From: Eubacteriales bacterium
GTDB lineage: Bacteria > Bacillota > Clostridia > Lachnospirales > Lachnospiraceae
DNA length: 64,000 bases
Reading direction: 5' to 3'
Assembly (NCBI GenBank): GCA_030524745.1
Contig: JAUNGC010000014.1
Span: 1 to 64,000 of the forward strand
Positions 8,693 to 13,184 of this stretch are shown piece after piece. The notes under the pieces are model-generated. The model saw only the letters and a list, made by a program, of their open reading frames with translations. It searched no databases and had not been told where the DNA came from. The translations under genes and the position numbers were made by a program. Positions within the stretch are counted from its first letter, which is position 1. Each line of letters starts with the position of its first letter.

Positions 8693-8911
8693 ATGGAACA
8701 AATTTTTACCAAATACGCCGATATGCCAGGAACAATCCGAGCCTACACTGCTGCTTGCGCGGATGGCTCCTATACCATTGTTTTAAACAGCCGACTTTGT
8801 TTTGAACTTCAACAAAAGGCTTATTTGCATGAAATGGCCCATATCAATAATGGGGACTATGAAATACAAACCGATGTCGGCATCCTTGAAAGCCAACGTC
8901 ATAAAAACTGA
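8693..8911 (+). CDS. Small ImmA/IrrE-type metallopeptidase
   Basis: A 72-aa zinc peptidase of the ImmA/IrrE group. The HExxH motif is seen in YLHEMAHINNGDY (residues ~44-56), preceded by SYTIVLNSRLC. Short versions of ~70-80 residues are common in clostridial prophages, so it need not be truncated. ImmA cleaves the cognate XRE repressor to induce an integrated element. The AAAAGGAGTG ribosome site and the 57-nt gap after the repressor gene indicate co-transcription. Confidence 0.8.
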   Translation: MEQIFTKYADMPGTIRAYTAACADGSYTIVLNSRLCFELQQKAYLHEMAHINNGDYEIQTDVGILESQRHKN

Positions 8912-10404: not shown

Positions 10405-10515
10405 CTGAAACAGTCCCGGCTCCCCATCGGGGCGCACCTTGATAATATACTTACCCGGGCAGCCGGGGGACGTGCTCCATTCCCGTTCCGAGTCTTGCGG
10501 AAAGGAGTGGTATTT

Positions 10516-10599
10516 ATGAGTACATATGAGGAATTTATGATAATCCTGACCACTGCGTTACTGATCGTCGCGATTCTGACTTATACACATAAAAAATAG
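10516..10599 (+). CDS. Type I hydrophobic toxin, copy 1
   Basis: A 27-codon gene encoding MSTYEEFMIILTTALLIVAI followed by a basic tail ending THKK. It fits the putative holin-like toxin group (Hol_Tox family) of Firmicutes: Tyr-Glu near the start, one membrane helix, and a short lysine-rich C-terminus. AAAGGAGTGG lies upstream of the ATG. The stop overlaps the stem of a hairpin terminator (AAAAAATAGCCGTC ... GACGACTATTTTTT). An antisense RNA promoter faces it from downstream. Overexpressed peptides of this class depolarise the cell membrane; here activity is inferred from sequence. Confidence 0.8.
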   Translation: MSTYEEFMIILTTALLIVAILTYTHKK

Positions 10600-10689
10600 C
10601 CGTCCTGCCCTCGCAAAGCTGACGACTATTTTTTAGTTCAATGTTTCGCCGGGACGGGTGAGGTGCATTCACCTTCCGGCTGTCCTGTT
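10591..10689 (-). ncRNA. Predicted antisense antitoxin RNA, copy 1
   Basis: Predicted from the consensus minus-strand promoter at 10696-10724 and the bidirectional hairpin at ~10591-10632, giving an RNA of about 100 nt. It would be complementary to the 3' end of the toxin mRNA, including the last codons, the stop and the terminator stem, as in TxpA/RatA and BsrG/SR4 systems. Start and end are estimates from promoter and U-run positions. Confidence 0.65.
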
Positions 10690-10695
10690 AAGTAT

Positions 10696-10724
10696 ATTAT
10701 ATGTCAAAGTATACTTAATGTCAA
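10696..10724 (-). promoter_or_regulatory. Antisense promoter, copy 1
   Basis: Minus-strand TTGACA (10719-10724), exactly 17 bp, TATAAT (10696-10701): a full consensus sigma-A promoter reading toward the toxin gene. A second TTGACA lies within the spacer. Confidence 0.8.
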
Positions 10725-10837
10725 ACTGAAAAAGCCCCGGCGCCGCGCCCGGGCCCCAACATCATAATATACTTACCAAGGCAGCCGGGAGGGCTGGCAT
10801 GCCATCCGATCTGAGTCTTGCAGAAAGGATGATGCTT

Positions 10838-10918
10838 ATGAGTACATATGAGGAATTTATGGTTATTTTAACCGTTGCGCTGCTCATCGTAGCAATTCTG
10901 AATATCAAAAATAAGTAA
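10838..10918 (+). CDS. Type I hydrophobic toxin, copy 2
   Basis: A 26-codon paralogue of copy 1, sharing MSTYEEFM and the membrane helix (VILTVALLIVAILN) and ending IKNK. AGAAAGGATG precedes the ATG. As in copy 1 the stop lies in a hairpin (ATAAGTAAGC ... GCTTACTTAT). The two peptides are identical over the first eight residues and differ in the tail, and the UTRs have diverged clearly, so this is an old duplication with both copies apparently intact. Different antitoxin sequences suggest each RNA could be specific to its own toxin mRNA. Confidence 0.8.
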   Translation: MSTYEEFMVILTVALLIVAILNIKNK

Positions 10919-11018
10919 GCCGCCCTGTTTCCTTGGCCGGATGGGCAGCTTACTTATAGTAACTGTTTTATAATCCGCCAGAACGGATAGGTTTCGTCTA
11001 TCTTCCGGCTGTCTTGTT
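10907..11018 (-). ncRNA. Predicted antisense antitoxin RNA, copy 2
   Basis: Same arrangement as copy 1: the promoter at 11025-11053 would start an RNA near 11018 that ends at the hairpin whose minus-strand side is followed by a run of T at ~10907-10911. It overlaps the toxin stop codon region and the 3' UTR. Ends are estimates. Confidence 0.65.
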
Positions 11019-11024
11019 AAGTAC

Positions 11025-11053
11025 ATTATAGCCCAATGTACATACAATGTCAA
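11025..11053 (-). promoter_or_regulatory. Antisense promoter, copy 2
   Basis: Minus-strand TTGACA (11048-11053), 17 bp, TATAAT (11025-11030), again full consensus. The hexamers and spacing are kept between copies although the spacer has diverged, which points to selection on the promoter. Confidence 0.8.
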
Positions 11054-11067
11054 ACTTTTTGGCAATG

Positions 11068-11092
11068 AAAAAGCCCCGGCGGCAACCGGAGC
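11068..11092 (-). terminator. Minus-strand terminator before antisense promoter 2
   Basis: On the minus strand GCTCCGG, a short loop, CCGGGGC and TTTTT form a rho-independent terminator. It would insulate the antitoxin promoter from transcription coming from the recombinase side. A similar GC-rich hairpin with a T-run is present at about 10731-10757 in copy 1. Confidence 0.55.
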
Positions 11093-11274
11093 AATTCCCG
11101 AAAACTATACAGGCCCGGAGACCGGTACAATCTTCCATCAACAAGCAGATTATACCACATTTCTCCGGCACCTGTACAGGTGTCTTTTTTGCACCCAAAA
11201 ATATTTCTGTGCGACGTCGCACAAGGAATCAGGGACAGGCAGGCACCAATACACTGTACAAGGAGGATGATCCC

Positions 11275-12693
11275 ATGAAGCAGGAACAGACAGCTCCGCC
11301 CAAAATCCAGCGGGCAGCAATCTATATCCGCGTCTCCACTGCGGAACAGGTGGTTCACGGCAAGTCCCTGCAGGCACAGATGGAATACCTGCAGCACTAC
11401 GCCGACGAGCACGGCATGAAGGTGGTCGGCATTTACGCTGACGAGGGGCAGACGGCACGCAAGGAATTGAAGAAGCGCAAGGCGATCCACCAGCTTCTGG
11501 CGGCGGTGAAGCGCGATGAAGTGGACGTGATCCTCTTCTGGCGGATGGACCGATGGTTCCGATCGGTGTCGGACTTCTACAAGGTGCAGGATATTCTGGA
11601 CGCCCACGAATGTATCTGGATCTCCACGTCGGAACCGAATATCAGCATGGAGACCAGAGACGGGCGTCTGAATCTGAACCTGGTGCTGACGATCGGCCAG
11701 AACGAGGTGGACACTACCAGCGAACGCATTCGTTTCACCGTGGACAACATGATCCAGAATGGTCGCGTGGTCTGGGGCGACGCCAACCTTCCATTGGGAT
11801 TCCGGATCCAGAACGACAACGGCAGGAAGCGGATCGTGAAAGATGAGACACAGGCGCCTATGGTGGACGAATTTTTCCGTTATTTCCTCACCCACCACAA
11901 CAAAAAGAAAACGGTCCTGCACATGCAGGAGACCTTCGGTATCGAGTTTTCCTACAGTATGCTACGCACGATGCTCACCAGCGAATTCTACATCGGGAAG
12001 TACCGGGACAATGAAAACTACTGCCCCGCTTATCTGACGCCGGAACAATGGAAGGAAGTTCAGTCAATCGCAAAGCGCAACATCAAAATGCAGCGCTCCG
12101 GCCGGATCTATCTCTTTACCGGACTGATGCGCTGCCCTGTGTGCGGCCAGAAACTTGCCGGGACTGGATGCAGTTCCATCATCAACCGCAGGACCCGCGA
12201 AAGACGGACATACTGCTATTATCGGTGCAACCGCGCGCTGACGGACAACTGCTGCTCTTACACGCACAAAGTCAGTCAGAATCTGATCGAGGAATATCTT
12301 TTGGAAAACCTGTTCTCCGAGTTTGCCGATTACCGGATCCGGATGGAAAAGATCGCTGAGGAAAAGAAACTGCAGCGCCAGTCCCGCACACCGGAGAAAA
12401 TCCGCGCGGAACTGGAGCGCGTCAATTATATGTATATGAAAGAGCGCCTTACCTTTGAAGCCTATGAGAAGGAGTACCAGCGCTTGGAAGACGAACTGAA
12501 AAATTCTCTGGCGGAAAGCAGCTTGCTTCCGGAGAAACGGGATTTTTCCAAAATAGAAACACTGATGCAGGGGGACTTAAGACAGATTTACGCCTCTCTG
12601 GATCAGGAGCACCGACAGGGATTTTGGCACGGAATTATAGAAGAAATTCATCTGGATTCTGATAACAAGGTGGTTTCAGTGGACTTTTTGTAA
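11275..12693 (+). CDS. Large serine recombinase (integrase)
   Basis: Site-specific recombinase, 472 aa, that integrates and excises the element. The resolvase domain begins AAIYIRVSTAEQVVHGKSLQ with catalytic Ser in YIRVST, followed by an arginine-rich FWRMDRWFRSVSDFYKVQDI region and the helix carrying ERIRF. A Recombinase domain (~165-260), a zinc ribbon (CPVCGQKLAGTGC ... YYRCNRA ... CCSYTH) and a C-terminal coiled coil follow. The start at 11275 has AGGAGG eight bases before it; the frame is open further upstream but without a ribosome site. It is the last gene before the element/host junction, as expected for an integrase. Confidence 0.9.
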   Translation: MKQEQTAPPKIQRAAIYIRVSTAEQVVHGKSLQAQMEYLQHYADEHGMKVVGIYADEGQTARKELKKRKAIHQLLAAVKRDEVDVILFWRMDRWFRSVSDFYKVQDILDAHECIWISTSEPNISMETRDGRLNLNLVLTIGQNEVDTTSERIRFTVDNMIQNGRVVWGDANLPLGFRIQNDNGRKRIVKDETQAPMVDEFFRYFLTHHNKKKTVLHMQETFGIEFSYSMLRTMLTSEFYIGKYRDNENYCPAYLTPEQWKEVQSIAKRNIKMQRSGRIYLFTGLMRCPVCGQKLAGTGCSSIINRRTRERRTYCYYRCNRALTDNCCSYTHKVSQNLIEEYLLENLFSEFADYRIRMEKIAEEKKLQRQSRTPEKIRAELERVNYMYMKERLTFEAYEKEYQRLEDELKNSLAESSLLPEKRDFSKIETLMQGDLRQIYASLDQEHRQGFWHGIIEEIHLDSDNKVVSVDFL

Positions 12694-12748
12694 TGAATTT
12701 GTAAAGAATTATGTAAATCTATTCCCTTTCAAGGAAATCTCCTATTCT

Positions 12749-12791
12749 CGCAAACCCGCATAAATACTGGGCTTGCGGGCTTCAAATTTTT
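12749..12791 (+). terminator. Terminator after recombinase
   Basis: CGCAAACCC pairs with GGGCTTGCG (one mismatch), followed by a T-rich tail (CAAATTTTT). It closes the rightward transcript at the edge of the element. Confidence 0.5.
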
Positions 12792-12799
12792 GTCTTGTA

Positions 12800-12830
12800 C
12801 TAACGGGATTGCTCCAAACCCGGTAATTAA
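12800..12830. other. Element/host junction (attachment site)
   Basis: The reading frame of the lipoprotein fragment follows its family up to LELITGFGA (codon boundary near 12810) and then turns into unrelated residues. This places one attachment-site half within about 12,805-12,825, on the sequence GGGTTTGGAGC. The exact crossover dinucleotide cannot be fixed without the other end of the element, which lies outside the window. Confidence 0.55.
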
Positions 12831-13184
12831 TTCCAGATCAATTCCTTCTTCTTCAAAGTATCCTTCCTCGATCGCCACGTACATAGGCGCATAAAAAATG
12901 GAGTGCGCCACTTCATTCAGTCTCACCTTCGCGGCTGTCTGATTGTCGCCTCCCTTTTCTCCGGTTGCCGTCGTTGCGCCGCAGGCAGTCAGGCAGGTTA
13001 ACAACAGCGCTGCCAGCGCAGAAAAAATCAAAAGCTTCTTTTTCATCATATCCTCCGATATGCCAAGTTGGTATATCATATGCATCAAAAGTAAAAAGGT
13101 GCTTTCTGACATCCTTCTGTCAAATCAACTTTCGGTCACCCGTTTTCCTTTTTCCGACATTGACGTTTTTGTGCAATAAAAAAA

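What the first reader, a model, noticed from the sequence alone, without database searches (positions are those of the whole stretch)
10405..11060. Two tandem type I toxin-antitoxin units in the prophage
Seen: two ORFs of 27 and 26 codons, identical in the first eight residues, each a single hydrophobic helix with a lysine tail, good ribosome sites, stops buried in hairpins, and identical flank order. Known: type I hydrophobic toxins with 3'-overlapping antisense antitoxins stabilise prophages in Firmicutes. Inference: this is a duplicated stabilisation system, and the divergence of the copies suggests independent antitoxin specificity.
Basis: partly seen in the sequence, partly recalled or inferred. 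Interest (0 to 1): 0.72.

Follow-up and report, generated by a model that had tools for sequence, protein, structure and literature searches.

The report
Two side-by-side RNA-silenced toxin peptide genes
A prophage in a gut bacterium carries, side by side, two tiny genes for membrane peptides that look like bacterial self-toxins, each apparently kept silent by its own small RNA made from the opposite DNA strand; the two are distant relatives rather than fresh copies of one another.

Summary
At 10405-11060 lie two ~325-bp units, each with a 26-27 aa single-helix peptide, a Shine-Dalgarno site, a hairpin over the stop codon and, pointing back at it, a perfect TTGACA-N17-TATAAT promoter. They belong to a large family in Lachnospiraceae: 65 of 397 family genomes have a peptide match, and 225 distinct units were recovered. 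In 176 of 216 units scored the antisense strand carries a promoter with 11 or 12 of 12 consensus bases (+ strand 2, shuffles 0; random genomic stretches 62 of 3000). Covariation supports a Shine-Dalgarno-masking hairpin in the toxin mRNA and a hairpin at the 5' end of the antisense RNA. The peptides are distant relatives of Hol_Tox, which takes in the known type I toxin BsrG. So: type I toxin-antitoxin units (confidence 0.88); toxicity and transcripts are untested. Two corrections. The copies are not a recent duplication: each has closer relatives elsewhere, and 10 of 15 tandem pairs on the tree span most of the family. And 8 of 11 relatives scanned have no phage-like neighbour, so prophage maintenance is not the family-wide role. 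Predicted pairing is strong only for cognate RNAs (-61, -56 versus -4, -10 kcal/mol).

The parts
10441..10446 (+). candidate -10 (GATAAT) of toxin mRNA 1; no good -35
   Evidence: sequence; in the family the best sense -10 in a 50-nt stretch matches TATAAT in 5-6 of 6 bases in 196 of 216 units (no null computed) but its best -35 has 4 or more of 6 in only 33 of 216
10442..10466 (+). left arm of the inverted repeat shared by the starts of toxin mRNA 1 and antisense RNA 1 (right arm 10676-10700)
   Evidence: 88% complementary; best 22-mer identity 17 or more in 104 of 128 representative units, 0 of 128 shuffled
10477..10510 (+). Shine-Dalgarno-masking hairpin of toxin mRNA 1
   Evidence: fold; covariation in 60 relatives, 66 double-change cells against 28.9 shuffled, 0 of 500
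10516..10599 (+). toxin-like peptide 1, 27 aa
   Evidence: Hol_Tox 20.3 bits, cut-off 23.3; dN<dS
10590..10635 (.). hairpin over stop codon 1, A/T tracts on both sides: probable shared (bidirectional) terminator, large variable loop
10584..10689 (-). predicted antisense RNA 1 (antitoxin), about 106 nt
   Evidence: promoter and hairpin positions; transcript not observed
10648..10680 (-). 5' hairpin of antisense RNA 1
   Evidence: fold; covariation in 59 relatives, 87 double-change cells against 31.7 shuffled, 0 of 500
10696..10724 (-). antisense promoter 1, TTGACA-N17-TATAAT
   Evidence: 12/12; conserved in family
10736..10753 (-). GC-rich terminator-like hairpin on the - strand between the units
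   Evidence: it lies in repeat D4, other copies at 10406 and 11066
10763..10768 (+). candidate -10 (CATAAT) of toxin mRNA 2
   Evidence: sequence, family pattern
10804..10830 (+). Shine-Dalgarno-masking hairpin of toxin mRNA 2
   Evidence: fold, covariation
10838..10918 (+). toxin-like peptide 2, 26 aa
   Evidence: (Hol_Tox 18.1 bits, cut-off 23.3)
10911..10957 (.). hairpin over stop codon 2, probable shared terminator with a different loop
10907..11018 (-). predicted antisense RNA 2 (antitoxin), about 112 nt
   Evidence: transcript not observed
11025..11053 (-). antisense promoter 2, TTGACA-N17-TATAAT
   Evidence: 12/12
11275..12693 (+). serine integrase next to the array (context)
   Evidence: Resolvase/Recombinase, PHROG 95 integrase

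Best explanation
Each unit is a type I toxin-antitoxin module. A weak + promoter makes a ~185-nt mRNA for a 26-27 aa membrane peptide; its Shine-Dalgarno site is folded away in a hairpin. A strong, consensus - promoter about 100 nt beyond the stop codon makes a ~106-112-nt antisense RNA with its own folded 5' hairpin. Both transcripts run into the hairpin over the stop codon, which serves as terminator for both, so they share ~54 complementary bases with a large, unit-specific loop. The antisense RNA most likely starts contact at that loop, forms a duplex, and exposes the mRNA to RNase III and/or keeps the start site closed. If the unit is lost or antisense synthesis stops, the less stable antisense RNA disappears first and the peptide damages the membrane. 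Shown by sequence and comparison: antisense promoters, both structured RNA leaders, the shared hairpin, purifying selection on the peptide, homology to BsrG. Inferred: transcription and its end points, toxicity, duplex formation, RNA stabilities and decay, and benefit to the prophage.
For: Antisense promoter 11/12 or better in 176 of 216 units, + strand of the same stretch 2 of 216, shuffled 0 of 216, random genomic stretches of that length 62 of 3000. Covariation of the Shine-Dalgarno hairpin and of the antisense 5' hairpin: paired cells, double-change cells and covariation score reached by 0 of 500 shuffles; in the latter, G-U cells (28) outnumber A-C cells (13), which favours the antisense strand. 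BsrG of phage SPbeta scores 34.5 bits in Hol_Tox; the 14 family peptides I chose (of 199) all match Hol_Tox at E up to 1, best 3.6e-8; profile-profile probability 97.6. Rfam BsrG matches unit 1 with 27.0 bits, E 2.6e-4, right strand and place. dN<dS in all 904 usable pairs. Location between repressor-like genes and integrase.
Against: No transcript or toxicity data. The two window peptides are below the Hol_Tox cut-off, the Rfam BsrG hits are far below the gathering score of 55, and only 6 of 20 relatives hit Rfam BsrG at E up to 1, five of them with E 0.18-0.75. In both covariation tests the two measures that count pairs or pair types do not exceed the shuffles. The sense promoter has no good -35 (10/12 or better in 25 of 216 upstream stretches against 4 of 216 shuffled). 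The hairpin over the stop seems better suited to the antisense RNA than to the mRNA: of 84 single interruptions of long stems 66 would be G-U on the antisense strand, 8 on the toxin strand, so where the mRNA ends is uncertain. 40 of 216 units lack an antisense promoter of 11/12.
Confidence: 0.88

Rival explanations
1. A small membrane peptide gene of another use (signal, holin-like or antibacterial peptide) that merely has an antisense regulator; not a self-toxin.
For: Hol_Tox is annotated as holin-like; one paper says of a homologous gene that its product is thought to be antibacterial (PMC11357604, passages seen). Toxicity untested here; 8 of 11 scanned relatives lie among non-phage genes.
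Against: BsrG, a type I toxin in print (PMC6562991, passages), is in the same Pfam family above cut-off; the convergent strong antisense promoter at fixed distance and the masked start site are the layout of type I units.
Confidence: 0.08
2. A par/Fst-like unit in mechanism: the antisense RNA also carries an anti-Shine-Dalgarno arm, so it closes the start site in trans in addition to pairing at the terminator.
For: In 114 of 128 representatives the 3' arm of the antisense hairpin (nt 22-46) pairs with the Shine-Dalgarno arm slightly better in cognate than non-cognate combinations (-13.8 against -12.8, z -4.8; shuffled arm -10.4; segments 1-20 and 46-70 show no preference, the overlapping 15-40 a weaker one, z -2.5) and resembles the mRNA's own anti-Shine-Dalgarno arm (11-mer identity 8.45 against 7.50, z 12). 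Same logic as DRa/DRb of par pAD1 (PMC7472228, passages).
Against: The cognate advantage is about 1 kcal/mol and permutation does not remove relatedness fully. It is not special to the Shine-Dalgarno site: in 90 units a control segment of the leader further upstream shows a larger one (centred -1.26 against -0.70). The arm is locked in the antisense RNA's own hairpin; dimer folding of the 5' parts gives almost nothing for the window's cognate pairs (-1.3 and -2.0) and more for one swapped pair (-6.3); Shine-Dalgarno 1 pairs better with antisense 2 (-19.4) than with its own (-13.7). Similar arms could also arise by gene conversion between the inverted repeats.
Confidence: 0.25
3. The mirrored ends mark a small mobile element (MITE-like) that happens to carry a peptide gene.
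For: About 25-nt inverted ends in 104 of 128 representatives, scattered contexts, several copies in many genomes, tandem units that are not sisters.
Against: The ends coincide with the two promoters and RNA leaders; the RNAs and peptide are under selection. Target-site duplications and empty sites were not examined.
Confidence: 0.07
4. Chance promoter matches next to unrelated small ORFs.
For: Short ORFs and promoter-like strings are common.
Against: Conservation and controls.
Confidence: 0.01

Closest known systems
bsrG/SR4 and txpA/RatA of Bacillus subtilis prophages (BsrG: Hol_Tox PF16935, Rfam RF01412)
   Same: related N-terminal motif and single helix (BsrG tested; TxpA not tested, said in PMC6562991 to be of BsrG's family), weak match to the BsrG RNA model over leader and ORF, antisense RNA overlapping the 3' end, masked Shine-Dalgarno in bsrG, prophage setting (PMC6562991, passages)
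   Different: 26-28 aa in most units instead of 38 (BsrG); predicted overlap ~54 bases against 100-140 bp in print; one hairpin seems to serve both RNAs; antisense RNA matches no Rfam family at gathering; below Hol_Tox and RF01412 cut-offs
par of plasmid pAD1 (Fst/RNA II)
   Same: convergent promoters, shared bidirectional terminator, hairpin over the Shine-Dalgarno, possible second contact at the start site (PMC7472228, passages)
   Different: no Fst match in Pfam; no clear DRa/DRb; both RNAs begin with nearly the same sequence because the unit's ends are inverted repeats
zorO-orzO / zorP-orzP of E. coli O157:H7
   Same: two tandem type I units; OrzP does not repress zorO, and a 3-nt stretch sets this specificity (PMC3919570, abstract and passages)
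   Different: sRNA gene divergent from the toxin gene rather than overlapping its 3' end; sequence relation of the toxins not tested
type I units of Clostridioides difficile prophages (CD0977.1-RCd11 and others)
   Same: type I units in Clostridia, most in prophages, several convergent, that stabilise a plasmid and are reported to help maintain phiCD630-1 (PMC7699646, passages; PMC6563280, passages)
   Different: toxins of 34-59 aa, described as without sequence homology to other known type I toxins

Membership tests
type I toxin-antitoxin system | small hydrophobic peptide ORF under selection | tested here: met
   26-28 aa in 196 of 225 units; dN<dS in 904 of 904 usable pairs
type I toxin-antitoxin system | antisense RNA gene with own promoter overlapping the mRNA | tested here: met
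   by sequence only: 176 of 216 units, structured antisense leader; transcript itself not observed
type I toxin-antitoxin system | peptide is toxic to its own cell and the RNA relieves it | not testable with these tools
   needs expression in a laboratory strain
Hol_Tox (PF16935), the Pfam family that includes BsrG | Pfam gathering score 23.3 bits | tested here: not met
   window peptides 20.3 and 18.1 bits; 14 of 14 chosen family peptides match at E up to 1, best 3.6e-8
Hol_Tox (PF16935), the Pfam family that includes BsrG | profile similarity | tested here: met
   hhalign probability 97.6, E 3.3e-12, profile of 14 chosen family peptides against 10 chosen Hol_Tox sequences including BsrG
Rfam BsrG RF01412 | gathering score 55 bits | tested here: not met
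   27.0 and 16.6 bits; 6 of 20 relatives at E up to 1, best 30.3 bits
Fst/par | Fst-type toxin sequence | tested here: not met
   no Fst family among Pfam matches listed up to E 10 (HMMER's filters drop many weak ones)
Fst/par | convergent promoters and shared bidirectional terminator | tested here: inconclusive
   antisense promoter clear, sense promoter weak; hairpin with tracts on both sides but termination not measured and G-U asymmetry favours the antisense side
Fst/par | hairpin masking the Shine-Dalgarno site | tested here: met
Fst/par | direct repeats giving complementarity at the start site | tested here: inconclusive
   weak cognate preference, larger in a control segment, little predicted gain
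Fst/par | U-turn motif in terminator loop | tested here: inconclusive
   YUNR string in 199 of 216 loops, but loops are long and no null was computed

The most novel reading that the evidence does not exclude
In Lachnospiraceae these units behave as interchangeable cassettes with mirror-image ends. Tandem arrays are assembled from distant members of the family rather than by copying, and the terminator loop is a small 'address' that keeps each antitoxin to its own toxin, changing early when two near-identical units sit side by side.
Probability: 0.2. Interest if true: 0.6.

Novelty: new variant of a known kind. Interest (0 to 1): 0.42.

Why it matters
It adds a compact, widespread family of probable RNA-controlled toxin peptides in major gut Clostridia. 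In the passages read, type I units of Clostridia were the C. [quoted passage not shown] asparagiforme (PMC6563280), and a SymE-like toxin in prophages of C. clostridioforme (PMC11318856). The antisense RNA matches no Rfam 15 family at gathering. With natural tandem pairs, some nearly identical in the ORF but one base apart in the loop, it offers a test of how few bases are needed to keep two antisense antitoxins apart.

Tried and rejected
Recent tandem duplication: rejected by the tree. Anti-Shine-Dalgarno action in trans as the main mechanism: kept only as a rival. Antisense promoters behind other Hol_Tox genes of the phylum: inconclusive; 12 of 30 loci had a 10/12 or better site on the antisense strand against 7 of 30 on the other strand and 80 of 600 shuffles, and my ORF choice failed visibly in several of the 30. 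DNA and protein searches of the phage and plasmid collections gave nothing. Phage proteins near relatives by tblastn with four queries: 10 of 117 loci, a lower bound because only four proteins were used, one of which hit nothing. The first structure string for the antisense hairpin was off by two columns and was replaced.

Loop divergence in near-identical tandem pairs: each of 4 pairs differs by exactly one change in the loop of 17-19 nt, but the same pairs also differ elsewhere: leader 10, 1, 2, 1; ORF 3, 1, 1, 0; stem 0; antisense leader plus promoter 10, 14, 14, 4. Two of the pairs are from one genus (G027 and G389, both g16) and show the same loop difference, so there are at most three distinct changes; suggestive only. 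The automatic loop finder takes the longest perfect stem, so a few 'loops' include stem bases. Two statements in my notebook are corrected here: 10, not 11, of 15 tandem pairs have a common ancestor spanning 116 or more of 216 leaves; and the third copy of this genome, noted as chromosomal, lies beside a 71-bp remnant of a gene of this prophage.

Full report
What is there. Window 10405-11060 holds two units of about 325 bp. Each contains, left to right on the + strand: a -10-like box without a good -35; a leader whose 5' arm masks the Shine-Dalgarno site; an ORF of 27 or 26 codons starting MSTYEEFM; an inverted repeat over the stop codon with A and T tracts on both sides; a second structured stretch; and a - strand promoter TTGACA-N17-TATAAT, perfect in both units. 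Between the units and at both outer borders lies a 16-nt repeat, which between the units and at the right border is part of a GC-rich terminator-like hairpin on the - strand. The surroundings are part of a prophage that reaches the contig end: primase, helicase and a Sak4-like gene on the - strand, repressor-like genes, a zinc-ribbon protein, the array, then a serine integrase.

Is it more than chance. The unit recurs in this genome once more (G000:C26:69167-69469), in 19 of 98 near genomes by DNA, and by peptide at E up to 0.01 in 65 of 397 genomes of the bacterial family, 16 of 295 of the order and 1 of 299 of the phylum, the window's own; all these counts include the window's genome. Viral contigs gave 7 and 17 stretches with two patterns. 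Together I extracted 225 distinct units with 199 distinct peptides; 216 were used, nine with odd start or length being dropped. The antisense strand has a promoter of 11 or 12 of 12 in 176 of 216; the + strand of the same stretch in 2 of 216; shuffles in 0 of 216; random stretches of the same length from these loci in 62 of 3000. An earlier, smaller set with longer stretches gave 76 of 97, 3 of 97 and, in five shuffles each, 2 of 485. The median distance from stop to -10 is 101 nt. The peptide is under purifying selection: mean diversity at codon positions 1, 2, 3 is 0.27, 0.13, 0.50 in 128 representatives, and dN<dS in all 904 usable pairs of 1500 drawn; for the window pair dN 0.15, dS 1.12.

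The RNAs. On 60 of 128 representatives less than 80% identical in leader and ORF, the Shine-Dalgarno hairpin forms standard pairs in 81.2% of cells, with 66 double changes against 28.9 in shuffles, 0 of 500 reaching it. On 59 of those 60, the antisense 5' hairpin pairs in 91.3% of cells, 87 double changes against 31.7, 0 of 500. The counts of pairs with double changes and of pair types do not exceed the shuffles in either case. Sliding the partners by 1-3 columns lowers pairing to 61% and 50% at most. G-U against A-C cells are 28 to 13 for the antisense hairpin and 57 to 44 for the Shine-Dalgarno hairpin, so each leans to the strand proposed, the second only slightly. For the hairpin over the stop, single interruptions next to stems of 8 or more pairs are 66 G-U on the antisense strand, 8 on the toxin strand, 10 other; these are not independent, but they suggest that the hairpin serves the antisense RNA first. 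That leaves the 3' end of the mRNA open. The starts of both RNAs share a ~25-nt inverted repeat, 17 of 22 or better in 104 of 128 representatives and 0 of 128 shuffled: both RNAs begin alike, for which I have no firm explanation.

What it is. The window peptides hit Pfam Hol_Tox just below its cut-off (20.3 and 18.1, cut-off 23.3). BsrG, read from the SPbeta record between yokL and yolA (that this ORF is BsrG is recalled from its place and sequence, the record does not annotate it), hits Hol_Tox above the cut-off at 34.5. A profile of 14 family peptides and one of ten Hol_Tox sequences with BsrG, both chosen by me, align with probability 97.6. Independently, Rfam's BsrG RNA model matches unit 1 on the right strand from the Shine-Dalgarno hairpin to the stop, 27.0 bits, E 2.6e-4, unit 2 with 16.6 bits, E 0.18, and 6 of 20 relatives at E up to 1, all at the unit and on its strand; all are below the gathering score of 55. 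So the toxin-like gene is a distant relative of BsrG, and the unit works like a type I module; by the curated cut-offs it is not a member of Hol_Tox or RF01412. In layout it is near to par of pAD1, with convergent promoters, a shared terminator and a masked start site (PMC7472228, passages), though the toxin is not Fst.

Specificity. Dimer folding of the predicted full RNAs gives -60.9 and -56.0 kcal/mol for the cognate and -3.8 and -9.5 for the swapped pairs: the shared hairpin makes the antitoxins private, as expected of overlapping RNAs whose overlaps have diverged. All 15 tandem pairs with both loops scored, of 16, have different terminator loops; 174 of 216 loops are distinct. In four near-identical tandem pairs the loop differs by one change each (at most three distinct changes, and these pairs differ elsewhere too). 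In print, a 3-nt stretch separates OrzO from OrzP (PMC3919570), whereas RCd12 tolerates at least three mismatches (PMC7699646), so one-base loop differences need a test. A second contact at the start site is possible but weakly supported; a control segment of the leader showed a larger cognate preference.

Origin of the pair. On a midpoint-rooted tree of 216 units the distance between units 1 and 2 is 0.84, while their nearest relatives elsewhere are at 0.27 and 0.19. Of 15 tandem pairs on the tree, 10 have a last common ancestor spanning 116 or more leaves, one spans 9, four are near-identical; 8 of 15 are at least as far apart as the median random pair, 1.17. Deep nodes are weakly supported, but the nearest-relative result does not rest on them. 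The pair is therefore a meeting of two lineages, or a very old duplication, not a fresh copy. Deletion of similar neighbours by recombination could produce part of this pattern.

Function. Flanking ORFs were scanned for 11 of 13 loci that had 3 kb on both sides (one search lists them; two of the 11 on one side only). In 3 of 11 (L228, L260, L267) a flank is a phage-type integrase, and in L228 and L260 the other flank is a repressor-like gene; in the window the repressor-like gene lies two genes further left. In the other 8 of 11 no flanking match was phage-like (kinases, transporters, dehydrogenases and the like). The three tandem units of Diplocloster agilis lie between ADP-ribosylglycohydrolase and sulphite-reductase genes. 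The third copy of this genome lies near a choloylglycine-hydrolase-like and two acetate-metabolism genes, but about 100 bp from it is a 71-bp stretch 93% identical to window 8836-8906, part of a short gene of this prophage, so it may sit in a prophage remnant. Prophage maintenance is plausible here and was reported for type I units of C. difficile (PMC7699646, passages), but it is not the family's common denominator.

What is not shown. No transcript, toxicity, RNA pairing or decay was measured. As to print: the listings, several of them capped, showed no paper on these units in Lachnospiraceae; mentions TxpA-like sequences predicted in Clostridium bolteae, so part of the family may have been seen before.

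Noticed in passing
window 11073-11178, - strand: A further conserved small-RNA-like gene beside the array: palindrome ACCTGTACAGGT, -10 TATAAT preceded by TG, about 70 nt, GC-rich terminator. Similar stretches in 11 other loci, 9 distinct sequences, at E below 1e-3, one over 26 nt only; no Rfam family at gathering.
   Followed up: partly
window 10406-10421, 10727-10742, 11066-11081: A 16-nt repeat (TGAAAAAGCCCCGGCG and a variant) at the borders of the units; the second and third copies are part of - strand terminator-like hairpins and may insulate neighbouring units.
   Followed up: no
window 10442-10466 with 10676-10700: Toxin mRNA and antisense RNA seem to start with nearly the same ~25 nt (inverted repeat), conserved in the family; purpose unclear.
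   Followed up: partly
G000:C45:18076-18138 and G000:C27:895-942: Two further weak Hol_Tox-like matches in the same genome, below cut-off.
   Followed up: no
L002 1339-1409 (beside the third copy, G000:C26): A 71-bp remnant, 93% identical to window 8836-8906 of the prophage, next to the third unit: perhaps a decayed prophage.
   Followed up: no
L296 (G027:C118), three units: Three near-identical tandem units between non-phage genes whose terminator loops all differ.
   Followed up: partly
L006/L210 against window 11063-13057: A close relative has the same integrase and flank (87-91% identical) but about 0.8 kb of other sequence between the unit and the integrase region, with the break at 11063.
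   Followed up: no
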